From assembly GCA_025353725.1 (NCBI GenBank), contig JANXOF010000023.1, positions 186,001-250,000 on the forward strand: a stretch of 64,000 nucleotides of DNA. Reading direction: 5' to 3'. The notes beneath the pieces are model-generated. The model ran no database searches. It saw only the letters and a list, made by a program, of their open reading frames with translations, and had not been told where the DNA came from. Position 1 is the stretch's first letter. The number at the start of each line of letters is the position of its first letter. This stretch comes from Polyangiaceae bacterium. Its GTDB lineage: Bacteria; Myxococcota_A; Polyangia; Polyangiales; Polyangiaceae. A program made the translations under genes and the position numbers. Of the stretch, positions 11,565 to 46,891 are shown one piece after another.

Positions 11565-12734
11565 TCAGCGTTTGAGCGTCTTTGCCTCGTCGGCGGCGCG
11601 CCAGAGATACCAACTCGCGACCGAACGATATGGACGAAAGGCGTCGCCCAGCGCCATCAACGCTTTCGCCGAGGGCTTATTGACGCCGAAGACGCGCGCA
11701 TATCCGGTTTGAACACCGAAGTCGTCTGTCGGCCAGACATCGAGACGCCGGAGTCGAAAGAGAAGGAGCATCTCGACCGTCCAACGGCCTATGCCGCGCA
11801 CGGTGACGAGCCGCTCGACGATGGCGTCGTCCGTCATGCGGCGCAGGAGAGCAAGCGGGGGGACCGTCCCATCAAGACTGCGCCTCGCGAGGTCGCGGAG
11901 CGCACGTAGCTTGTTCGCGGAGAGTCCTGCGCCGCGAAGGCCATCGTCGGTGATGTGGTCCATCGCGGCGGCATGGACGCTTTCGTCTGGAAAGAGAGCC
12001 ACCACGCGCCCGTGAATCGTCGCGGCGGCTTTGCCATTAAGCTGCTGGAAAACGATCGACCGGGTGAGCGCCGCGAACGTTTCGACCGGCTTCATGAACG
12101 AAAGCGCCGGTGGGCCTACGTGTGCCACCCAGCTCGCCATGGCACGGCTCGACGACGCGAGATGGCCAACGGCCGCCTCGAGCGTTCGCGCATTCGCGAG
12201 AACGATGCGCCGTTTCGGCGTGAGGTCGGCTCCCTCAGCGACAAGCATCGCGCGTTTCGCCTCCACCCCGCCGGGGGCCGAAAAGCCACCGATTCGCTTG
12301 TTTTGGCCGAGCACCCGATGGCACGGGACAAGAATCGGAAACGGATTTTTGCCGAGGGCCGTACCCACCGCGCGTGAGGCCTTCGGAGCGCCAAGGGTCG
12401 ACGCGAGTTCGCCGTACGAGCGAGTCTCGCCCGAGGGAATCGCGCGTGTTGCATCATACACTTTTATGGCAAACGCGGTCAGGCCGGCCGTCGCGAGCGA
12501 CACGTCCGAAAAGTCCTGAGAATCTCCGTCAAGGTGTCGGCGCAAGCGTCCAATCAACCGCCGCACGAACGGAGGCGGGGCCGTCTCAGCGAGCTCCGGG
12601 CAACACTCCAACGCACGCAGCCGCGTCTCGGCCGCAGTCCTTGACGGGAGCACGACCGCTTGGATCGCGGCTTTTTCCCATGCAATCGCGGACGCACCAA
12701 GGGCAGTTGGGAAGAAGCAAAATCCAGCGCTCAC
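11565..12734 (-). CDS. Fused O6-alkylguanine methyltransferase and 3-methyladenine glycosylase
   Basis: A 389-residue cytoplasmic repair protein that combines two alkylation-repair activities. Residues 1-175 are an Ogt/Ada-C domain with the acceptor cysteine in PCHRV (Cys138), the SYGELA helix and the family Asn/Gly segment GKNPFPIL. Residues 185-389 are an AlkA-like HhH-GPD glycosylase, with FQQLNGKAA, the helix-hairpin-helix TVRGIGRWT (about 311-319) and the catalytic Asp in WPTDDFG (337/338). Suicidal removal of O6-alkyl groups and base excision of N-alkylpurines would thus be in one chain. The GTG start lies 1 nt after the stop of the lipoprotein gene at 12736, so the two are probably co-transcribed. 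Confidence 0.88.
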   Translation of the reverse strand: MSAGFCFFPTALGASAIAWEKAAIQAVVLPSRTAAETRLRALECCPELAETAPPPFVRRLIGRLRRHLDGDSQDFSDVSLATAGLTAFAIKVYDATRAIPSGETRSYGELASTLGAPKASRAVGTALGKNPFPILVPCHRVLGQNKRIGGFSAPGGVEAKRAMLVAEGADLTPKRRIVLANARTLEAAVGHLASSSRAMASWVAHVGPPALSFMKPVETFAALTRSIVFQQLNGKAAATIHGRVVALFPDESVHAAAMDHITDDGLRGAGLSANKLRALRDLARRSLDGTVPPLALLRRMTDDAIVERLVTVRGIGRWTVEMLLLFRLRRLDVWPTDDFGVQTGYARVFGVNKPSAKALMALGDAFRPYRSVASWYLWRAADEAKTLKR

Positions 12735-12735
12735 G

Positions 12736-13266
12736 TCAGGGGCCGACGTTGACTTGGAAGCTCATCTCGCGTGACCAAAGGTTGTCGCGCACGAGGAGGA
12801 AGCGCTTCCCCGCGGACAGTGGCGCCGCAAGTTCCGCGAGTGCGGTGCCGTCGGGCTGCTTTACGGCCGTTGTTTTCGCTAGCACCTGGAACGCCTCGTC
12901 GACCACAAGCACGCGCGGGGCGCCGGGGAAACCTCCCGAAACCGTCACGGTTTGCGCGGCTTGCTGGTCGGTCGTAGCCCGCGTTGCGGCGGGAACGATT
13001 TCGACCGCGAGGTACGGGAGCGTGTGAGACGCCGAGGCGTCGCTCGGAGCGTAGTGGACCGTCTTTGTCGAGCCGACCGCGACAGCACCCTTGAGCACCA
13101 TCGCGCCGCGAAGGCTCGTGACCTCCGCTTCAGAGAGCTCTGCGCCGTGGTCGAAGTCGGCGCGATTCTCGCCCGACGAACACCCTGAAAGCACGCAAAA
13201 ACCAGCTACGGCGAGGCCTCCAAGGCCGAGAGTCAGCGTCCTCGAGTCGGAAAAGCGGGTCGTCAT
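12736..13266 (-). CDS. Exported lipoprotein, unknown function
   Basis: A 176-residue lipoprotein with a signal peptide and the lipobox VLSGC. The mature part is mostly predicted beta strand (segments TKTVHYAP, LPYLAVEIVPA, VTVSGGFPGAPRVLVVD) and has no catalytic motif that I recognise. It lies immediately upstream of the DNA-repair fusion with a 1-nt gap, which suggests one transcript, though no functional link is evident. Confidence 0.7.
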   Translation of the reverse strand: MTTRFSDSRTLTLGLGGLAVAGFCVLSGCSSGENRADFDHGAELSEAEVTSLRGAMVLKGAVAVGSTKTVHYAPSDASASHTLPYLAVEIVPAATRATTDQQAAQTVTVSGGFPGAPRVLVVDEAFQVLAKTTAVKQPDGTALAELAAPLSAGKRFLLVRDNLWSREMSFQVNVGP

Positions 13267-33955: not shown

Positions 33956-35371
33956 ATGCGAACTGCGTCGCCTCTCTCTATTTTTGGCGCCTGCGTGGTG
34001 GCGATGGCCGCTGGGTGCAGGACGCCGGATCAGCCACCCGCGAGTTTGGTGTCGTCGGCTCGACCAAAGGCTTCAGCGCGTCAAACGCCCGCGGCTCGGG
34101 GGACGACCGTCGATGTGCTCCCCTTTATTCACGACGATTATCCGCGTGCACTCGCCGAGGCCAAGCGGACAGGTCGGCGTCTTTTTGTCGATGCGTGGGC
34201 ACCTTGGTGCCACTCCTGCTTGAGTATGCGCGCGTACGTGCTCACAGATCCGCAGCTCGCGCCGCTTAGCGACGCGTTCGTCTGGCTCGCTCTCGACACA
34301 GAAAAAGAAGGCAATTCGAAGTTCGTCGAGCACTTCCCGAACCGCGTATGGCCCACGCTGTGGGTGATCGACCCCGTCAGCGAATCCCCCGTACTCAGGT
34401 GGGAGAGCACGGCGACGGCACCGGAGCTTGCGTCGCTCCTCGCGACCGTCTCGGAGGCGGGTCGGCCCGGAGCCGGGCAGGCCGCCGTCACGTTTCTAAA
34501 AGCCAACCAGGCCGCGGCACGCGGCGAGACCGTCGCCACCGAAAAGGGATATCGCGCCGTTCTCTCGGACAGGACCTCGCCCGATAGGGACCGGGCCGCG
34601 GAGGCGCTCGTTAGTCTTCTGTCGAGCCGTCATCGAGATGCAGAATGCACCGAAATCGCGATTACCGAGACCGAGATTACCGAGACCGAGGGCGCACGGA
34701 TGCTCCCTGGGACATCCCGGGCGATTGTCCTTATCACGGGACTTGGATGCGCGCGCTCGGCGAAGCTCACGGCGGCACTGACCACGCTCACTGAAGCCGC
34801 CGAGCGCGCGGCAAGCGACGTTGACCCGCGGACGGCCGCCGACGACCGCTCGGCGCTTTTCGACGAGCTTGTCACGACGAAGAAAGACCAGCACGACGAG
34901 GCTTCTGCGAAAGCCATCGCGCAACGGTGGGCGTCGTTTCTCGAAGCCGAAGCCGCGCGAGCGACCACCCCCATGGCGCGCGCCGTGTTCGACCCGCATC
35001 GCGTCGAGGCCTACCTCGCAGCGGGTGAGCCTGCACGTGCTGTCCCCATGCTGGTCCTCAGCGAGCGCGACTTTCCGGACGACTACAACCCGCCCGCGCG
35101 CCTGGCGCGCGTGTTGATGGCCATGAACAACCTGGATGACGCTCAAGCCGCAGTGACTCGCGCGAGCGCGCTTGTCTACGGCCCAAGGCAGCTTCACGTC
35201 CTCTCACTGGCGGCCGATATCGCGAAAGCACGGCGCGACTCGGCGGGCGAACGCGCCGCACTCGAGAAGGCGCTTTCACACACCGAAACGTCGGTCCTGA
35301 CGTCGAGCCAAAAGCAGAGTCGCGCGGACCTCGAAAAGCGCTTACGCGACTTACCTCCACGTAGCCCTTGA
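33956..35371 (+). CDS. Thioredoxin-like lipoprotein with TPR-type C-terminal region
   Basis: A 471-residue lipoprotein (lipobox MAAGC). The N-terminal mature domain (about residues 50-160) is thioredoxin-like with the active-site motif WAPWCHSC and the later cis-Pro segment VWPTLWVID. This resembles DUF255/DsbD-gamma type domains acting on periplasmic thiols. The C-terminal 270 residues are helical repeats (for example AYLAAGEPARAVPMLVLSE, VLMAMNNLDDAQAAVTRAS) of TPR type that may bind a partner. A 15-bp tandem duplication near 34660-34689 gives the repeated TETEI segment. Confidence 0.82.
   Translation: MRTASPLSIFGACVVAMAAGCRTPDQPPASLVSSARPKASARQTPAARGTTVDVLPFIHDDYPRALAEAKRTGRRLFVDAWAPWCHSCLSMRAYVLTDPQLAPLSDAFVWLALDTEKEGNSKFVEHFPNRVWPTLWVIDPVSESPVLRWESTATAPELASLLATVSEAGRPGAGQAAVTFLKANQAAARGETVATEKGYRAVLSDRTSPDRDRAAEALVSLLSSRHRDAECTEIAITETEITETEGARMLPGTSRAIVLITGLGCARSAKLTAALTTLTEAAERAASDVDPRTAADDRSALFDELVTTKKDQHDEASAKAIAQRWASFLEAEAARATTPMARAVFDPHRVEAYLAAGEPARAVPMLVLSERDFPDDYNPPARLARVLMAMNNLDDAQAAVTRASALVYGPRQLHVLSLAADIAKARRDSAGERAALEKALSHTETSVLTSSQKQSRADLEKRLRDLPPRSP
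34660..34689 (+). repeat. 15-bp perfect tandem duplication within a coding region
   Basis: GATTACCGAGACCGA occurs twice in direct succession and adds five residues (ITETE) to the thioredoxin-like lipoprotein without shifting the frame. It lies in a linker between the two domains. Confidence 0.9.
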
Positions 35372-37214: not shown

Positions 37215-38039
37215 CTAGTCACGGTCGATGGGCACGGTGAGGACGCGTACGGAGGCGTCGCTCGTTCCTTCGCGCGCTCGCGCAAGGGCGTCGTCAAAGC
37301 GCTTGAATGACATGCCCGCATCTCCAATGACGACGCGCACCTCGCGGGCTCCGTCGAGGGCGCGTGACTTACCGCGAATCCGCACCGAGCCCTCGGGGGC
37401 AATTTCGATGGTCGCCTCGATAGGGTTCGGTTCACGCTCGCCCATGGCGAAGGCGTAAACGGCGATTTTGACCGCAGTGGCGGTCGCCGGGCGCACGATC
37501 ATCTCGAAGGGGTTGTCTCCGGGTCGCAAGACAAGGCGCGCGGGCGAACTGTCCGGCGCAGGACCACGCATCGCCTGCTCCGCGCTCACAGACACGTCGT
37601 AGTCAGGCAACGGCGGGGCGCTGCGACCTTCATTCCGACCTGCAAAAGTCCAAAGCAGAACGGCCGCTGCGACAGCGAGAGAACCGGCGACGGGCGCCGC
37701 GCGACGCATGAAAGGCACGACCTTGCGACGCGGGAAAGCGCTCTCGAGCGATTCGCGCGAGGTTGTCGAGCGTTGCGCTGACATCGGCGTTAGAGGCTGC
37801 AGGGAAAGAAGCGCGGATGCTTCTATGCGTGACACGACGTCGTCGCTGAGCGGTCGGCTGAGCGCGATCATGTCCGCAAGTTCGGGGTCACGGACGGCGC
37901 GGCGTTCGAGGTCGACGACTTCCGCTGTCGCGCCTTCACCGCGCGCGACGGACTCGAGTGCGGCGTCGTCGGCGCGCTGGGTTCGCACATGATTCCGTAG
38001 GGATTCGAGTACGGGGTCAAACGCTCCCTCCGACTTCAT
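37215..38039 (-). CDS. Membrane partner of the ECF sigma factor (anti-sigma candidate)
   Basis: About 274 residues, with a cytoplasmic N-terminal 110 residues, one membrane helix (VAGSLAVAAAVLLWTFAG) and an outer domain rich in beta strands (ARLVLRPGDNPFEMIVRP, IAVYAFAMGEREPNP). The topology is that of an anti-sigma factor, but the zinc HxxxCxxC motif of ZAS proteins is absent. The ATG at 38039 overlaps the sigma stop, and an AGAGG lies about 7 nt upstream. Coupled translation with the sigma gene supports a regulatory pair (inference). Confidence 0.7.
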   Translation of the reverse strand: MKSEGAFDPVLESLRNHVRTQRADDAALESVARGEGATAEVVDLERRAVRDPELADMIALSRPLSDDVVSRIEASALLSLQPLTPMSAQRSTTSRESLESAFPRRKVVPFMRRAAPVAGSLAVAAAVLLWTFAGRNEGRSAPPLPDYDVSVSAEQAMRGPAPDSSPARLVLRPGDNPFEMIVRPATATAVKIAVYAFAMGEREPNPIEATIEIAPEGSVRIRGKSRALDGAREVRVVIGDAGMSFKRFDDALARAREGTSDASVRVLTVPIDRD

Positions 38040-38728
38040 GGCCATCCCTCTTTAGCCTTACGCGGCGACGCCTTCGAGTCTGACACCACGCTTGCAACCG
38101 AAGTCTCTTTTACCGCACTGCGTGGCTCGCTGAGCGCGAACTCGGCGGCGAGTCTCCGCAGTACCTTCGTGATGCGGCTCTTCCACGCGTACGCGGCATC
38201 GGGGGTCATGCCCGAGGACGCGCAGAGAGACTCGATGCTCTCTTCTTCGACAAATAACCGATGAAAGAGTTCGAGGCCGCGCGGCGACAGCGCCTCGCCG
38301 AGCCGTTCGACAACGCGGGCAAGCTGCTCGCGCGAGGCCACACACACCTCGGCGTCGGGCACTTCGCCGAGCTCTTTCTCGAGCTCATCGAGCTCGGTCG
38401 CTTCATCCTTCCACGGGCTCCGTCGTCCGCTCCGAAGAATGGAGGCCGCCTCACGTTCGGCAATCAGCCCGCACCAACTCACGAGGCTCAACCCGCGGGA
38501 GGCGTCCCACGCACGGAGCACGGCACCGCGATCGGCGAAAAGCGACGCAAATACGTCTTGCGCGAGGTCATTGACCTCTTGCCTCGCGTCTCGTCCGCTA
38601 CGGCCGCGACGCCGTACGAGCGTTCGCACAACACGAGCCTGCACCACGGGCATGAGCAGCGCCACCAGCTGCCGTGTCGCGGCCGCGTCGCCCGATAGCG
38701 CCTGGTCCAAAAGGGCGCGCTCGTCCAC
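38036..38728 (-). CDS. ECF-type sigma factor
   Basis: A 230-residue sigma-70 family protein. Region 2 is at about residues 15-105 with VNDLAQDVFASLFADRG and LSLVSWCGLIAEREA; region 4 is at about 145-200 with LSPRGLELFHRLFVEEESI and the helix-turn-helix SSGMTPDAAYAWKSRITKV. The extra basic stretch between helices (RRRGRSGRDARQE) is unusual. The stop overlaps the downstream membrane gene, which is the probable controller. Lack of an N-terminal region 1 confirms the ECF class. Confidence 0.85.
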   Translation of the reverse strand: MDERALLDQALSGDAAATRQLVALLMPVVQARVVRTLVRRRGRSGRDARQEVNDLAQDVFASLFADRGAVLRAWDASRGLSLVSWCGLIAEREAASILRSGRRSPWKDEATELDELEKELGEVPDAEVCVASREQLARVVERLGEALSPRGLELFHRLFVEEESIESLCASSGMTPDAAYAWKSRITKVLRRLAAEFALSEPRSAVKETSVASVVSDSKASPRKAKEGWP

Positions 38729-38752: not shown

Positions 38753-39490
38753 CTAACGGATCTCGATGAGGCCCTGCACGTAGGTCGAGCCCGTTGGAGG
38801 TGGAGGAAGATGGAGTGTTACGGCACGCGCCTCCGACGCAACAGCGCCGACCTGGTCCACCTGAAATGCTCGAAACCCGCCGTTCGATAACCCAACCGCG
38901 AAGTCTTGGTGCCAGAGGTTGTCCACCGGCGAAACAACGAAGACGTCTCGGTTTACGACAAAGCCGCATATGTCGCATCCGACGGACCCACCCATGGGAC
39001 CTATCGAACGGGGCTCGGTCACGTCACTCGATCGCGTCGCCCGGACTTTCGCTGAATAGCCGGTGACGTCGTTCCCGCAAATGGGGGAGAGCGTTCCGTG
39101 AGATGACGCTGCGGCCTCGCGGAGCGGCCGTGCATCAGGTCGGGCTCCCTTCGTTCCTGACCACCGGTAAGCGCAGGCCGACGCTTGCACCGACTCGGGA
39201 GCGCCCGGAAAGATAGACTCAGGTAGCCATGCGCCGTACGCGCTCGCTATCCGCCGACACGCCCCGTCGGCTTCAAAGAACGAAGCGAGGTAGAGGTGCG
39301 GGTTCGTGCAGAAACCACGGAATTCGTCGGCGCTGACTTCGAGTTTCGCGTCAACCGTATCTCCCTCGTCGGCCACGCGCGACACACATGCGGGCGGGAC
39401 GAGCGAGCAGAACGAGATGGCTGCAATCGGCGCGGCGCGGAAGAGTGAACCGCGCACGAACGAGCGGAAGCCGGTCAAGAGTAGTCTCAT
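38753..39490 (-). CDS. Exported lipoprotein, unknown
   Basis: About 245 residues from ATG 39490 with a signal peptide ending at PPAC. The mature part contains several conserved-looking Cys (RGFCTNPHLYLASFF, GGSVGCDICGFVV) and an aromatic VDNLWHQDFAVGLSNGGF segment. No known family is recognised. It lies just upstream of the ECF sigma gene on the same strand and may be unrelated. Disulfide bonds are likely. Confidence 0.55.
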   Translation of the reverse strand: MRLLLTGFRSFVRGSLFRAAPIAAISFCSLVPPACVSRVADEGDTVDAKLEVSADEFRGFCTNPHLYLASFFEADGACRRIASAYGAWLPESIFPGAPESVQASACAYRWSGTKGARPDARPLREAAASSHGTLSPICGNDVTGYSAKVRATRSSDVTEPRSIGPMGGSVGCDICGFVVNRDVFVVSPVDNLWHQDFAVGLSNGGFRAFQVDQVGAVASEARAVTLHLPPPPTGSTYVQGLIEIR

Positions 39491-39594
39491 AGTTGACACG
39501 TGGGACGCTAGCAGCGGATGCATGACACGCAAGGCGACGAATCCGCATGTGCGAGAGTCGTCCGCCTTGCGAACGTTGACAAAGCGGAGCCCGC

Positions 39595-40125
39595 TCAGAA
39601 GATGCAGAACTCGCCTGGCTTGGTGCAAATGCCACGTAGCGGGTTGCAGCAGGCAAGACCCTTGCCGCACGTCACGTCACCGCAAGCCGTGGTGGTCGGC
39701 ACGGGCGCCGGCTTCGGCATGCACGTTGCTGGGGCGCAGCAGCTCTTGTCGTTCGGCAAGCAAAAGGCGTAACACCTACCAGGCGCGCAACGATCGGTCG
39801 GCGCACAATCGTCATCCGTCGCGCACTCATTCTGAGTCTGCGCGGGCAGCTTTTTGCAAACGCCGCCGCGCTCCGGGATACCGAGGACGCCCGGCGGCAG
39901 AGGCTCGACTTCACACGAAAGGCCTTTGGCGCAAGGTTTACCCATAAAGTCATTGCACGCTTGACCGAGGCGAGCCTTCGCGCCGCGCACGTCGGCCTCT
40001 TGCGCCTCCGCGGCGCCGGCCACGTCCGAGTCGGTCGCAGACTCGCTTGAGCAGCCCGCGGCAAAGAGCGAGGCTGAGAGACAGACCGAGACAAGAGAAT
40101 TCATGAAAAAACCGCGAATAGTCAT
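39595..40125 (-). CDS. Cys-rich exported lipoprotein
   Basis: About 176 residues from ATG 40125, with GGAG 7 nt upstream. The lipobox is FAAGC. The mature part has about 18 cysteines in short modules such as RLGQACNDFMGKPCAKGLSC, ECATDDDCAPTDRCAPGRC and CGDVTCGKGLACC, typical of myxobacterial disulfide-rich surface proteins. It is divergent from the TPR-CHAT gene; the two starts are only about 60 bp apart, so their promoters overlap. Confidence 0.75.
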   Translation of the reverse strand: MTIRGFFMNSLVSVCLSASLFAAGCSSESATDSDVAGAAEAQEADVRGAKARLGQACNDFMGKPCAKGLSCEVEPLPPGVLGIPERGGVCKKLPAQTQNECATDDDCAPTDRCAPGRCYAFCLPNDKSCCAPATCMPKPAPVPTTTACGDVTCGKGLACCNPLRGICTKPGEFCIF

Positions 40126-40187
40126 AGGAAACTCCGGCGTCGGCCCGAGCGGGTTGACGCTTTTTGAGGACAGTTGAGAGGCGCACC

Positions 40188-43001
40188 GTGGACTACGCCG
40201 GCACACACGCGCGTCTGACACGGCGTCGGTCGATTTTTAACGTGGTGCTCGTCGTGGCGAATACATTCGCCTGCCACCGTTCGCCAGCGCCCGCTGAGGC
40301 GAAGGAGACAGCACTTGAGGCGACCTTCGGTGGGTGCGCAGCCGTCACGGCGGAGGACCGCGGCATCGTTTGCGAGCTGGGGGAAGCACGCGAGTTGAAG
40401 CTCGTCGTTTCGCGCGCCGCCTTGGATGTCACCATCGAGGTCGAGACCTCTGCGAAAGGCAAGTCAACGCCGATCGCGTCTCGCTCAGAAGTAAGCTTGG
40501 ACAGCGTACGCCATACGGTCGACGTCCCGGTAAGCGCTGGGCAGATCACGGTACGCGCCACCGTAAAGGGAGAGCGGTCGGCTTTTAGGCTCACGGTACG
40601 AGACGCGGCGTCACCCCCTTGGCTGGGGGAAGCCAAGGCGCTTCGTTCGAGCGGGGAGCTCCCTCGAGCACGTGCTCTCGCGGTCGCACACCTCGAGGAC
40701 GGACCATCGACGTGTGCCCTCGCCAAAAGCCTACTCGCGCGGATAAGCCTTGCAGAAGGGCATAGCGAAGACGCGTTCGTTCTGTTTCGCGCGGCTATCG
40801 CCTTGCACCGGAGCGCAAGGCGCCTCTCGGATGTCGTCGACGACTCGTTTGCGCTCGCGTTCGCACTCCACCAGCGAAGTCACCGCTACGACGAGGCGCG
40901 CGCCACGCTCGATGCGCTGAGCACGGAGCTTTTGCTCTACCCGGAGGGACAAGCAAGGGAGCCTTATTACCGAGGGATTTTGGCGTCTGAAACAGGCAAT
41001 CGACGCGGCGCACGCGTGTGGCTCCAGGAGGCCGAAAAACGCGCTCATACGCTCGGGATGAACCGCCTGGAACGCCACGCTCAAGCGGCGCTTGCGCTGG
41101 AAATGCAGGTTCTCGGCCACGCCCGAGAATCACTCGAAAGACTTCGCGGACTCGAGCGCCTTCCGGAAGTCACGGGCTGCGAGCGCGTCGAAGTGGCCAA
41201 TGATCTCGGTTGGGGAGCGCTCCTTGCGAACGAATCCACCGGCGACCTACGCGAAGACGCGCGAGGGCCACTCGAGCGCGCCGTCGCCGCGCAGGATTGC
41301 GGCGACGTGAATGTTAAAGGCTTTGCGTTCGGGAATCTCGCGCGGTTAGCCCTTCGCGAAGGCGACTCTTCGGGCGCCCAGACGTATCTCGACCGGGCGC
41401 GAGCGCTCGTGACGGAGCCGCGCGGGAGCGAGCGCCTCGCGTGGCTCGACCTCGACGGCCAAATTCTACTTTCAAGGCACTTGCCGCACGCGGCGCTCGC
41501 TCGATTTGACGAGGAGCTCACGAAGGCGAACTCGAACGCCGCGCTCGAAGCGGTGTGGAGCGCACACCTCGGACGAGCTCGCGCGCTCGAGGCGCTTGGC
41601 CGCCGAGCCGACGTCGTCGATTCGCTGCTCAAAGCCGAAGCTGTCGTCGACCGCGCGATGCTGCTCGTGCCCCTCGGCGAAGGCCGAGGCGTCTTCGTGT
41701 CCGACCACGATAGGAGCGCTCGGTGGGTCATCGAACACCTCGTGACGGTCGGTCGAACGACGGAAGCCGCGAGCGTCGCGAGGCGGTCAAGCATGCGCGT
41801 TCTTGGCAGCGTCGCGCGGGCACTTCGCATCGAGCGCCTGCCGCCCACGGAGCGTTCGCGGTGGGAGAATGCCGTGCAATCCTACCGGGCGTCACGCGAG
41901 GAGCTCGAGGCTCAGGCCACGACGAATTGGAAGCTCCCGACCGACGCGCGCGGACGGTCCGCGGCAAATCGTAAGGATCGCGAAAGCACGCTGCGTGGGT
42001 TGCTCGAGGCCGCGATGGCCGAACTTACAACGAATACAAACGACAACGCCGAGACCGAGGTAGCCGCTCGCGGCCATCCACCTCCCGGCGACCTCGAAGT
42101 GCTCGTTCATCCTGGAAAGACAGGTTGGTTTGCGATCGCTGTCGACGCTTCTCGAGCGACAGCGCATCGGATTCCCGATCCGGAAGGCGTATCTTTACAA
42201 GACCTCGCGAGAGCGCTGCTCGACCCTATTGCTTCTCGCATTGCCGAGGCGAAGCGCGTACGTGTACGTGCGTACGGCGCGTGGCGACGGGTCGACATTC
42301 ATGCGATGCCGTTTCATGGCGCTCCGCTTCTCGCGTCTGTCACGGTCGACTATCCACTCGGACTCGGGACTCGCTATCCACTCGGACTCGGGACTCGCCC
42401 AGCTGCCGTACGGACGGAAAGCCAAGCGCTCATCATCGGGGATCCGACATCGGATCTTGAAGCCGCTCGCGGGGAGGCCGAACGTGTCGCTATCGAAGTG
42501 CGACGCCGTATGCGTGTGACGACGCTGCTCGGATCCGAGGCCACCAGTCGCGGCACGCTGGCACGGCTAGCACGCGTCGATTTGCTGCACTACGCGGGGC
42601 ACGGCGTGTTCGCGGGAGCTGAGGGATGGGAAAGCACGCTCCCCCTCGCCGACGGCGCAAGCCTTTCGATCGGTGATCTTCTCGCGCTGCCACGCGCTCC
42701 CCTCAAAGTCGTTCTTACAGGCTGTGACGCCGCGCGAAGTGCGGGTGGGGCCGAAGGTTTGGGCCTCGCCCAAGCGCTCGTCGTTTCAGGGTCGGAGGAG
42801 GTACTCGCGCCCACGCGCCCAGTCAGCGACGTGCTCGGGGCGGCCCTTGCGGGCGCTCTCTACAGCGGTTCCAACGGCGACGTGACTTGCGCCTTTGGCG
42901 ACCCTGGATCGCTAGCCCGCGCTACGCGGATCGCACTCGAAGCTCTTCGTGCGCGCGATCCGGCGGCGGATTGGTCTGCGTTTCGAGTACTTGCCCGCTA
43001 A
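40188..43001 (+). CDS. TPR-CHAT protein (caspase-like), probable lipoprotein
   Basis: About 937 residues from GTG 40188, which has a GAGAGG ribosome site. A short N-terminal hydrophobic stretch ending in TFAC may be a lipoprotein signal. Residues 40-140 are beta-rich. TPR-like helices fill about residues 150-480 (for example ARALAVAHLEDGP, ETGNRRGARVWLQEAEKRA, LREGDSSGAQTYLDRARALV). The C-terminal 300 residues are a CHAT domain with the catalytic His of LLHYAGHG (about 805) and Cys of VVLTGCDAA (about 846), so the caspase-like dyad is intact. A 24-bp tandem duplication gives YPLGLGTR twice just before it. Confidence 0.88.
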   Translation: MDYAGTHARLTRRRSIFNVVLVVANTFACHRSPAPAEAKETALEATFGGCAAVTAEDRGIVCELGEARELKLVVSRAALDVTIEVETSAKGKSTPIASRSEVSLDSVRHTVDVPVSAGQITVRATVKGERSAFRLTVRDAASPPWLGEAKALRSSGELPRARALAVAHLEDGPSTCALAKSLLARISLAEGHSEDAFVLFRAAIALHRSARRLSDVVDDSFALAFALHQRSHRYDEARATLDALSTELLLYPEGQAREPYYRGILASETGNRRGARVWLQEAEKRAHTLGMNRLERHAQAALALEMQVLGHARESLERLRGLERLPEVTGCERVEVANDLGWGALLANESTGDLREDARGPLERAVAAQDCGDVNVKGFAFGNLARLALREGDSSGAQTYLDRARALVTEPRGSERLAWLDLDGQILLSRHLPHAALARFDEELTKANSNAALEAVWSAHLGRARALEALGRRADVVDSLLKAEAVVDRAMLLVPLGEGRGVFVSDHDRSARWVIEHLVTVGRTTEAASVARRSSMRVLGSVARALRIERLPPTERSRWENAVQSYRASREELEAQATTNWKLPTDARGRSAANRKDRESTLRGLLEAAMAELTTNTNDNAETEVAARGHPPPGDLEVLVHPGKTGWFAIAVDASRATAHRIPDPEGVSLQDLARALLDPIASRIAEAKRVRVRAYGAWRRVDIHAMPFHGAPLLASVTVDYPLGLGTRYPLGLGTRPAAVRTESQALIIGDPTSDLEAARGEAERVAIEVRRRMRVTTLLGSEATSRGTLARLARVDLLHYAGHGVFAGAEGWESTLPLADGASLSIGDLLALPRAPLKVVLTGCDAARSAGGAEGLGLAQALVVSGSEEVLAPTRPVSDVLGAALAGALYSGSNGDVTCAFGDPGSLARATRIALEALRARDPAADWSAFRVLAR
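42351..42398 (+). repeat. 24-bp perfect tandem duplication within the CHAT gene
   Basis: Two identical 24-bp units in direct succession duplicate YPLGLGTR in frame near residues 722-737 of the CHAT protein. It is likely a recent slippage duplication because the copies are identical at DNA level. Confidence 0.92.
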
Positions 43002-45501: not shown

Positions 45502-46170
45502 TCATACAGACGATAAAGCAAGGTCAACGACCAGCGCGCGCGCGGCCTTGCAGCGTTTCGCGCTCAACTCGACACCAAGGGCATCAAGGCTCATCGCGTT
45601 GGCCACAGCGAGCGCTGTTCCGCGGCCGCAGAACGGGTCGACCACGACACGCGCGCCGACCTCGTCGCGGAGATATGAGCAAGCGACGCGGCAAGCGGTC
45701 ACCCCCATAGCGCGACTCCAAGGCATAAACCCAGCGTCGGGCAGGACGTCGGGCCCCGGCTTTTTCGCGGTCGCCCGCGGCGCATGTCCGACGCAGAGCA
45801 TATGAGACCAGCTCGGCCGACCGAACGAGATGGTTCCCGGCGGACGGCGGCACACGATCTTGTGCCAAAGGAGTACAGCTCCCGCCTCCTCTGCGGCCCG
45901 CAAGACGAGGTAGCTTTTATCAACGAGGGTATCTTCGCGGCGGACGTCACTTTGGAAGAAGACCGCGACTCCGGAGCGCGGAGTCCACGCGATGACGTCG
46001 CGTGCCGCCTTCACAAACCACGCTCGCCAGGCGTCGAACCCGAGGTCCGGGCGCTCGGAGATGTCAGGCAGCGACGTTACAACGCTCGCGTTGGGCGGCG
46101 CTTCGTTTTCGGACATCCACGCAAGCGACTCGGCCTGGACGACGGTTCGACGAGGCGCAGAGAGGGTCAT
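45502..46170 (-). CDS. DNA methyltransferase-like protein
   Basis: A 222-residue protein from ATG 46170. It has NASVVTSLPDISE near residues 28-39, at the place of the catalytic (D/N/S)PPY loop, and DPFCGRGTALAVANAMSL (about 178-195), the AdoMet-binding FxGxG motif with ALGVELSAKR following. The order (catalytic-type motif before SAM motif) is that of beta-class DNA N-methylases. The usual DPPY/TSPPY is altered to TSLPD, so activity on DNA is doubtful; a related RNA or DNA methylase is possible. It is divergent from the zf-PARP gene 55 bp away. Confidence 0.65.
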   Translation of the reverse strand: MTLSAPRRTVVQAESLAWMSENEAPPNASVVTSLPDISERPDLGFDAWRAWFVKAARDVIAWTPRSGVAVFFQSDVRREDTLVDKSYLVLRAAEEAGAVLLWHKIVCRRPPGTISFGRPSWSHMLCVGHAPRATAKKPGPDVLPDAGFMPWSRAMGVTACRVACSYLRDEVGARVVVDPFCGRGTALAVANAMSLDALGVELSAKRCKAARALVVDLALSSV

Positions 46171-46224
46171 TTGGATTGGCTCTATACGATGGTGAAGGTA
46201 AACGGGTGAGTACATAGAGGAACC

Positions 46225-46770
46225 ATGGCGAACATCATCGAAGTCGCGAAGTCTGGACGGGCGACCTGTCGGTCGTGCCGGAGCGCCATTCCAAAGGGCG
46301 ACCTCCGATTTGGTGAAGAGACCCCGAATCAGTTTGGTGAGCCTGGAGACCTTTCCTACCGGTGGCACCACCTCGCGTGCGCGGCGAGCAAGCTCCCCGA
46401 CGAGGTACGCGCGGCTCTCGCCGATTTCCAGGGTGAGGTTCCCGGACGTGACGCACTCGATCAAACGTTGGCGGCCGCGGTAGCCAACAAACCGCCTCCA
46501 TTTCCGCATGCCGACCGCGCACCGACGGGCCGTGCCACATGCCAAGGCTGTGGCGAAAAGCTCGCGAAGGGCGCGCTCCGCGTCGTCGTCGAGCGTGACA
46601 TCGAGCGCGGAATGACGGTCACGAAGGGCGCCGGGTACCTGCATCCTGCATGTGCCGCGGCTTACGTCGAAGAGCACGGCAGTACGCACGCGGAGCTCAG
46701 CGCTGGACTCGACGCGAATACACGCGGGCTTTCGGAAGACGACCGCACGGAGCTCTTCTCCCAAGTTTGA
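46225..46770 (+). CDS. Double PARP-type zinc-finger protein
   Basis: A 181-residue cytoplasmic protein made almost entirely of two zf-PARP domains. Finger 1 has Cys15, Cys18, His49 and Cys52, with the family context AKSGRATCRSCRSAIPKG and YRWHHLAC. Finger 2 has Cys106, Cys109, His140 and Cys143 (GRATCQGCGEKLAKGALRV, YLHPAC). In eukaryotic PARP1 and DNA ligase III such fingers recognise DNA nicks and ends. No catalytic domain is attached, so it may be a DNA-break sensor or adaptor (inference). It is divergent from the methylase-like gene. Confidence 0.85.
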   Translation: MANIIEVAKSGRATCRSCRSAIPKGDLRFGEETPNQFGEPGDLSYRWHHLACAASKLPDEVRAALADFQGEVPGRDALDQTLAAAVANKPPPFPHADRAPTGRATCQGCGEKLAKGALRVVVERDIERGMTVTKGAGYLHPACAAAYVEEHGSTHAELSAGLDANTRGLSEDDRTELFSQV

Positions 46771-46891
46771 CAGCAACGCTTCCGTTCGCCGCGGGTCGCG
46801 CACGCCACTTCGGAAATATTTTCGCCGAGCCGGATTCGTCGGCAAGTCGCCTTGCGCTTCCCTTTCCCCGCGGTAAGCCTACTTACCCTTG

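What the first reader, a model, noticed from the sequence alone, without database searches (positions are those of the whole stretch)
40188..43001. TPR-CHAT caspase-like protein with a lipoprotein-type N terminus
The CHAT His-Cys dyad is intact and is preceded by a large TPR region. Known bacterial CHAT proteases act as programmed-cell-death or antiviral effectors, with partners such as gasdermins. Here the N terminus looks exported, and the protein is divergent from an 18-Cys surface lipoprotein. An exported CHAT protease would be an unusual system.
Basis: partly seen in the sequence, partly recalled or inferred. Interest (0 to 1): 0.62.

Follow-up and report, generated by a model that had tools for sequence, protein, structure and literature searches.

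The report
Exported caspase-like partner of sigma switch
This bacterial gene encodes an exported caspase-like protease that is inherited together with a gene-switch protein (sigma factor) and the membrane protein likely to hold that switch off, so it probably carries a signal from outside the cell to the genes by cutting the membrane protein.

Summary
Window 40188-43001 (+) encodes a TPR-CHAT protein with an intact His805/Cys846 dyad, kept in all 59 distinct CHATs aligned, window included. Of 54 tested, 27 have a strict lipobox and 21 only a hydrophobic segment; the window is among the latter. The programmed-death/gasdermin reading is not supported. The conserved partners are an ECF-type sigma factor (38036-38728, -) and a single-pass membrane protein (37215-38045, -): 32 of 41 CHAT loci carry both, and one more has the membrane protein beside another ECF sigma. 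The membrane protein is best read as an anti-sigma factor: two versions carry an HxxxCxxC domain, and three loci fuse it in frame to CHAT. Its outer Ig-like domain diverges in step with CHAT, not with the sigma. The closest solved relatives are Myxococcus xanthus DdvA, a one-piece anti-sigma/TPR-CHAT protein, and Csx29 of Craspase, which cuts an anti-sigma factor. The window is therefore a split, three-gene version of a DdvS/DdvA-like switch, found in 41 of 377 genomes of its phylum and three Acidobacteriota-type MAGs. Anti-sigma cleavage, perhaps at Arg160, is inferred, not shown.

The parts
40188..43001 (+). Exported TPR-CHAT gene (937 aa, GTG start)
   Evidence: ORF, Pfam CHAT, AlphaFold2 pLDDT 86.5
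40188..40274 (+). Putative signal segment, residues 1-29, ending at candidate lipid Cys29 (weak lipobox)
   Evidence: Sequence; family scan (strict lipobox 27 of 54, window only hydrophobic); AF2 helix 15-24
40305..40607 (+). N-terminal beta-sandwich with conserved Cys50 and Cys62 (possible disulphide)
40617..41813 (+). TPR-like solenoid, with conserved Cys331 and Cys371
42090..42995 (+). CHAT peptidase domain (residues 635-936)
42600..42602 (+). Dyad His805 codon
   Evidence: 59 of 59 distinct CHATs, window included
42723..42725 (+). Dyad Cys846 codon
   Evidence: 59 of 59 distinct CHATs, window included
42828..42830 (+). Asp881 codon, candidate acidic S1 residue
   Evidence: Asp in 57 of 59 CHATs; S1 role inferred
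38036..38728 (-). ECF-type sigma factor, conserved partner
   Evidence: Pfam Sigma70_r2 E 0.0072, below cut-off; NCBIfam sigma70-ECF E 6.9e-06, below cut-off; same family in 32 of 41 CHAT loci
37215..38045 (-). Single-pass membrane anti-sigma-like protein (276 aa); an internal ATG overlaps the sigma stop as ATGA
37626..37688 (-). Predicted membrane helix 120-140 of the anti-sigma-like protein
37566..37568 (-). Arg160 codon in a lower-confidence juxtamembrane stretch, candidate cleavage site
   Evidence: Arg in 80 of 83 homologues with a residue there; block pLDDT 74 and 71; cleavage inferred
38753..39670 (-). ORF just upstream of the sigma gene; exported-looking by eye; no Pfam match; not seen to recur
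39595..40128 (-). Cys-rich lipoprotein divergent from CHAT; not seen to recur

Best explanation
The gene is the extracytoplasmic protease and sensor arm of a three-gene signalling module: ECF sigma factor, single-pass membrane anti-sigma factor with an Ig-like outer domain, and an exported, probably lipid-anchored TPR-CHAT caspase-like protein. Proposed mechanism: the N-terminal helical domain of the anti-sigma factor holds the sigma factor at the inner membrane. The CHAT protein sits beside the anti-sigma outer domain; its TPR and beta-sandwich regions sense an envelope signal. Once activated, the His805/Cys846 site cuts the anti-sigma outer domain, perhaps after the near-invariant juxtamembrane Arg160. 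Further proteolysis then frees the sigma factor. Shown here: the genes, their linkage, the fusions, the conserved dyad, sequence signals of topology, and the shared divergence of the Ig domain with CHAT. Inferred: sigma binding, sensing, cleavage, site and release. I put the three-part module at about 0.9 and anti-sigma cleavage by CHAT at about 0.5.
For: Linkage: 32 of 41 CHAT loci (window included) have both the sigma and the membrane protein. In ten CHAT-bearing genomes the sigma family has 1-7 members each, 21 in all (four genomes not fully scored); of the 15 best (E 1.6e-38 or better) 13 lie within 5 kb of a CHAT by coordinates. Co-occurrence: the membrane protein is found in 47 of 377 genomes, CHAT in 41, both in 37 (capped scoring). 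Fusions: L064, L065, L103 carry membrane protein and CHAT in one frame. Swap: L057 and L095 keep outer domain and CHAT but have HxxxCxxC and a different ECF sigma (Pfam zf-HC2 in L095 only). Co-divergence in 46 trio loci: Ig~CHAT r 0.81, partial given sigma 0.71, reached by 0 of 999 permutations; Ig~sigma given CHAT 0.02. Precedent: DdvA joins a zf-HC2 domain, membrane helix and TPR-CHAT with His and Cys at the dyad columns. Csx29, a TPR-CHAT, cuts the sigma inhibitor Csx30 (PMC10028731, passages) and is a fold match, Z 25.8 over 511 residues, rmsd 10.6.
Against: No activity or binding was measured. Eight of 41 loci show neither partner; four have a short or cut flank on at least one side, and 6 of the 8 genomes have the membrane protein elsewhere. 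The N-terminal domain of the window's membrane protein matches no Pfam or NCBIfam family, and in 46 trio loci it did not track the sigma once CHAT was controlled (partial 0.09) while it did track CHAT (0.40). DdvA's deposited chain is full-length (991 residues) with 872-897 residues modelled, so a complete dyad next to an anti-sigma domain did not evidently cut it. Co-divergence may partly reflect shared ancestry. The fold matches are loose (Foldseek TM 0.23-0.25 to DdvA, 0.38-0.47 to 8eey_B), and TPR-only chains reach Z 22. Arg160 may be structural: Gly219, Pro186 and Tyr149 are as conserved. The window lipobox is weak.
Confidence: 0.55

Rival explanations
1. The CHAT protein is a non-cutting co-sensor. 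It binds the anti-sigma outer domain and holds it in the inhibiting state or changes its shape, much as the large outer region of DdvA might act, and another protease or none frees the sigma factor.
For: Fusions and co-divergence show coupling but not cutting. DdvA's deposited chain is full-length although it keeps His and Cys.
Against: His and Cys are kept in 59 of 59 CHATs and Asp881 in 57 of 59, which a pure scaffold would not require.
Confidence: 0.27
2. CHAT is an output of the switch: an exported effector in the sigma regulon, linked to the pair only for its transcription.
For: In 11 of the 32 linked loci, the window included, the sigma gene is not upstream of CHAT on the same strand.
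Against: In-frame fusion in three loci, and divergence of CHAT in step with the anti-sigma outer domain, which does not itself track the sigma once CHAT is controlled.
Confidence: 0.12
3. A programmed-death or antiphage protease with a pore-forming or nuclease partner.
For: Other CHAT proteins act in defence. DdvS controls a defence island in M. xanthus (PMC12288465, passage).
Against: No PADLOC match in the three window proteins, no gasdermin among ten window proteins, no clear third conserved partner among neighbour clusters, and export-like N termini.
Confidence: 0.06

Closest known systems
DdvS/DdvA of Myxococcus xanthus (PDB 8rot, 8rw5)
   Same: Membrane anti-sigma factor joined to a TPR-CHAT region beyond the membrane helix; a frame that looks like an ECF sigma (by eye) directly upstream; His and Cys at the dyad columns; first Foldseek match by E-value (2.3e-14); VIA Z 21.0 over 608 residues, rmsd 5.7.
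   Different: One polypeptide with a zf-HC2 domain; no match to the window family's Ig-type membrane protein, and its sigma frame is not matched by the window's sigma profile. The window has separate genes and a lipoprotein-type CHAT.
Craspase/CASP: Csx29, Csx30, CASP-sigma
   Same: TPR-CHAT protease in a locus with a sigma factor and its inhibitor; the protease cuts the inhibitor (PMC10028731, passages); fold match Z 25.8 for 7y83_D and 24.4 for 8eey_B.
   Different: That protease is switched on by Cas7-11 and target RNA. Here the CHAT family carries export-like N termini and the inhibitor is membrane-anchored.
RseA/DegS regulated proteolysis (sigma-E)
   Same: Membrane anti-sigma factor controlled from outside by site-1 cleavage (PMC8103513, passages).
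   Different: DegS is a serine HtrA-type protease; the candidate here is a caspase-like cysteine protease.
CalpL/CalpT/CalpS
   Same: Protease, anti-sigma and ECF sigma as a three-protein set; the protease cuts the anti-sigma (PMC11417357, passages).
   Different: Lon-type protease activated by cyclic tetra-adenylate through a SAVED domain.

Membership tests
CHAT peptidases (Pfam PF12770) | Match to the CHAT profile and fold | tested here: met
   E 9.8e-20, 71.6 bits against cut-off 24; Csx29, separase and DdvA among the fold matches
CHAT peptidases (Pfam PF12770) | His-Cys dyad | tested here: met
   59 of 59 distinct CHATs, window included
CHAT peptidases (Pfam PF12770) | Proteolytic activity | not testable with these tools
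   No assay possible
DdvA-type anti-sigma/TPR-CHAT | ECF sigma gene beside a membrane anti-sigma-like gene | tested here: met
   Window 38036-38728 and 37215-38045, overlapping; anti-sigma function itself inferred
DdvA-type anti-sigma/TPR-CHAT | Anti-sigma domain, membrane helix and TPR-CHAT in one polypeptide | tested here: not met
   Two separate genes in the window; met in relatives L064, L065, L103
DdvA-type anti-sigma/TPR-CHAT | Zinc-type (HxxxCxxC) anti-sigma domain | tested here: not met
   Absent in the window; found in 2 (L057, L095) of the 56 membrane proteins scanned, starts guessed
DdvA-type anti-sigma/TPR-CHAT | Control of a CBASS-CRISPR defence island | tested here: inconclusive
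   No PADLOC match in the module proteins; neighbours not scanned with PADLOC; regulon unknown; no shared promoter motif found
Craspase (Csx29/Csx30/CASP-sigma) | TPR-CHAT fold | tested here: met
   Z 25.8, 511 residues aligned, rmsd 10.6
Craspase (Csx29/Csx30/CASP-sigma) | Cas7-11 and CRISPR RNA partner | not tested
   No genome-wide search for Cas7-11 was made; none among ten window proteins
Membrane anti-sigma factors | Cytosolic helical domain, one membrane helix, outer domain | tested here: met
   AF2 helices 11-34, 41-52, 54-63, 68-82, membrane helix 120-140, beta domain 149-275; mean pLDDT 81.2, pTM 0.54; sidedness inferred
Membrane anti-sigma factors | Binding and inhibition of the sigma factor | not testable with these tools
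   No complex prediction or assay available
Bacterial lipoproteins | Lipobox after a basic n-region and hydrophobic core | tested here: inconclusive
   Window fails the strict pattern; 27 of 54 CHATs pass
CHAT-gasdermin death systems | Gasdermin partner gene | tested here: inconclusive
   None among ten window proteins scanned with Pfam; neighbours of relatives were not scanned with Pfam

The most novel reading that the evidence does not exclude
A caspase-like (CHAT) cysteine protease works outside the inner membrane as a dedicated, in-trans site-1 protease of a membrane anti-sigma factor, cutting after a near-invariant juxtamembrane arginine. One CHAT/outer-domain sensor unit has been plugged into different sigma/anti-sigma pairs and split or fused more than once, giving the window module, DdvA-like proteins and, in the cytosol, a parallel to Craspase.
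Probability: 0.38. Interest if true: 0.82.

Novelty: new variant of a known kind. Interest (0 to 1): 0.6.

Why it matters
Two separately described cases, Craspase and M. xanthus DdvA, tie CHAT proteins to sigma inhibitors. This module supplies a further case in which protease, inhibitor and sigma are separate genes and can be tested one by one. It would add a caspase-like enzyme to the site-1 proteases of envelope signalling. The question of what triggers DdvA, stated as unknown in 2015, could be approached with a simpler, split relative. It also gives the family concrete, mutable predictions: Cys846, Asp881 and anti-sigma Arg160.

Tried and rejected
Gasdermin or other effector partner: none among ten window proteins. 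ECF promoter motif upstream of 46 sigma genes: no dyad or hexamer above shuffles. Sequence search for solved relatives: the window CHAT gave nothing convincing (E 0.64 at best), nor did one fused and one Pyxidicoccus CHAT; the full profile gave TPR proteins; the CHAT-only profile found Csx29 weakly (E 0.014) but not DdvA. DdvA was found by fold first and then by a hunt beside Cmr2 genes, after searches in Myxococcaceae had not shown it. DdvA as catalytically dead: rejected, its His and Cys align with the dyad. Defence-system membership: no PADLOC match for the window proteins; DdvA gave one weak match (E 0.0035). Outer domain of the anti-sigma-like protein: no specific family, mostly generic Ig-type matches and no sequence relative in the PDB (best E 0.087); its N-terminal domain was not resolved by those searches because the Ig part filled the lists. 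The print status of the split module rests on searches (listings), which listed no paper on it. The two primary DdvA papers and the ECF classification paper were not held, so I cannot say that they do not mention it. Two papers opened for CHAT or ECF context gave no CHAT-sigma link in the passages seen (PMC10907252, PMC8103513).
Full report
WHAT IS THERE. Window 40188-43001 (+) is a 937-codon gene with a GTG start and a good ribosome site. Pfam CHAT matches at E 9.8e-20. AlphaFold2 with 28 sequences gives mean pLDDT 86.5 and pTM 0.85: short N-terminal helix, beta-sandwich, TPR-like solenoid, CHAT domain. In the window's own genome it is the only match at E 0.001. His805 and Cys846 are kept in 41 of 41 loci of the first set and in 59 of 59 distinct CHATs of both sets, window included. 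Asp881 is kept in 57 of 59; I recall, without a call, that separases carry an acidic S1 residue at a similar distance from the Cys.

EXPORT. In 54 CHATs the stretch before the beta-sandwich has a strict lipobox with a basic n-region in 27, only a hydrophobic segment in 21, and neither in 6. Shuffled stretches pass the strict test in 2%; the hydrophobic class had no such control. Four of the 6 have a lipobox, by eye, that my cut-out missed. Ten duplicates, two truncated CHATs, two fusions and one locus that could not be placed were dropped. The window's own lipobox (TFAC, preceded by Asn) fails the strict pattern, so it is a probable but unproven lipoprotein. Four non-catalytic Cys (50, 62, 331, 371) are invariant in 20 CHATs and at least 90% conserved in 28, which fits disulphides in an oxidising compartment (inference).

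PARTNERS. I fetched the 40 best of the 59 CHAT places other than the window's own; the other 19 were not used for this count. With the window, 32 of 41 loci carry a gene of the window's sigma family and, next to it, a homologue of the window's 276-aa membrane protein. One more (L057) has the membrane protein with another ECF sigma, and 8 have neither. In 21 of the 32 the sigma is upstream of CHAT on the same strand. The window has a divergent arrangement: sigma and membrane protein (overlapping genes) lie on the minus strand behind two exported-looking proteins. Of the 8 without partners, four have a short or cut flank on at least one side (L038, L039, L048, L058), and 6 of the 8 genomes carry the membrane protein elsewhere.

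SPECIFICITY. In ten CHAT-bearing genomes the sigma family has 1 to 7 members at E 1e-10, 21 in all; in four genomes 150 of 152-178 candidates were scored. Comparing coordinates, 13 of the 15 best members lie within 5 kb of a CHAT gene; the exceptions are G125:C39 and G364:C34. Of the six weaker members, two more do (G107:C103:118416 and G107:C37) and four were not examined. Across the same 377 genomes, CHAT is found in 41 (E 1e-10, two candidates scored per genome), the membrane protein in 47 (E 1e-6, six scored), both in 37; of the 10 with only the membrane protein, one (G104) does have an adjacent CHAT by profile. A second, named set from the search for related loci gave 32 loci, 28 of them close relatives and four weak: Labilithrix, Polyangium, Byssovorax, Sorangium, Pyxidicoccus and unnamed Myxococcota MAGs, two Acidobacteriota MAGs (L086, L091) and one Holophagales MAG (L083), these three each with the full trio.

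WHY THE MEMBRANE PROTEIN IS READ AS AN ANTI-SIGMA FACTOR. It follows the sigma gene. A hydrophobic 19-mer (mean 1.40 to 2.90) was present in 56 of 56 homologues (duplicates included). The window protein is predicted as a four-helix N-terminal part, membrane helix 120-140 and an outer Ig-like beta domain (mean pLDDT 81.2, pTM 0.54). In L057 and L095 the N-terminal part carries HxxxCxxC; L095 matches Pfam zf-HC2 (1 of 24 members) and, below cut-off, NCBIfam ChrR-type anti-sigma; L057 matches no family. In both loci the frame just upstream matches the NCBIfam ECF sigma superfamily above cut-off. So the sigma/anti-sigma unit has been swapped while the outer domain and CHAT stayed. Against this, the window protein's N-terminal domain matches no family.

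WHY CHAT IS COUPLED TO THE OUTER DOMAIN. In L064, L065 and L103 the membrane protein and CHAT are one frame; all three are from one genus (g17) and may be one event. In 46 trio loci, pairwise distances of the Ig domain track those of CHAT (r 0.81; partial given sigma 0.71; 0 of 999 permutations) and not the sigma once CHAT is controlled (0.02). The N-terminal domain did not track the sigma given CHAT (0.09) but did track CHAT given the sigma (0.40), a point against a simple reading. In 84 aligned membrane proteins, Arg160 is kept in 80 of the 83 that have a residue there; Gly219 (84 of 84), Pro186 (81) and Tyr149 (79) are similarly conserved. Arg160 lies about 20 residues beyond the membrane helix, in the part of the outer domain with the lowest model confidence (blocks of 74 and 71 against 82-97 elsewhere). 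That makes it the candidate cut site; a structural role is not excluded.

COMPARISON. By E-value the first fold match of the CHAT model is M. xanthus DdvA (8rw5, 2.3e-14; 8rot), followed by Csx29 and separases; whole-chain TM-scores are low (0.23-0.25 for DdvA, 0.38-0.47 for 8eey_B). VIA-align gives Z 25.8 for Csx29 (7y83_D), 21.6 for human separase and 21.0 for DdvA; TPR-only chains reach 22.5, so part of this is the solenoid. It has zf-HC2 and CHAT domains by Pfam, an ECF-like frame (by eye) just upstream, and His and Cys at the dyad columns. DdvS controls a CBASS and type III-B CRISPR island (PMC12288465, passage), and the trigger of DdvA was unknown in 2015 (PMC4374960, passage). The Craspase paper shows Csx29 cutting the sigma inhibitor Csx30 (PMC10028731, passages). 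The window module works like these but is not a DdvA as defined: the single-chain and zinc-domain features were tested and not met.

VERDICT. A new, split variant of a known kind of switch, present in many Myxococcota. Module identity is well supported; cleavage and the site are predictions. Interest 0.6.

Noticed in passing
L199:9008-13414, L207:139-4365; similar frames in L204, L206, L210: Near Cmr2 genes in Myxococcaceae, a long frame (protein kinase plus nSTAND1 in the two scanned with Pfam) is followed by a sigma gene weakly matched by the window's sigma profile; such sigma hits in 6 of 8 genomes looked at.
   Followed up: partly
G107, G057, G067, G212: Each genome gives six membrane anti-sigma-like matches (some weak), the number scored per genome, so the module seems expanded there.
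   Followed up: partly
L034:6813-7571 and 12210-13058: Two membrane-protein homologues flank one CHAT gene; the upstream one seems to lack the N-terminal helical part.
   Followed up: no
L125, L127, L128 (G125, G144, G041): Sigma and membrane protein without a CHAT in the stretch fetched, while the same genomes have a CHAT match on another contig.
   Followed up: partly
window 33956-35371 (+): Exported-looking thioredoxin-like protein with a TPR match.
   Followed up: no
window 45502-46845 (-): Frame whose translation ends in a motif that looks like a DNA methylase (by eye, no call).
   Followed up: no
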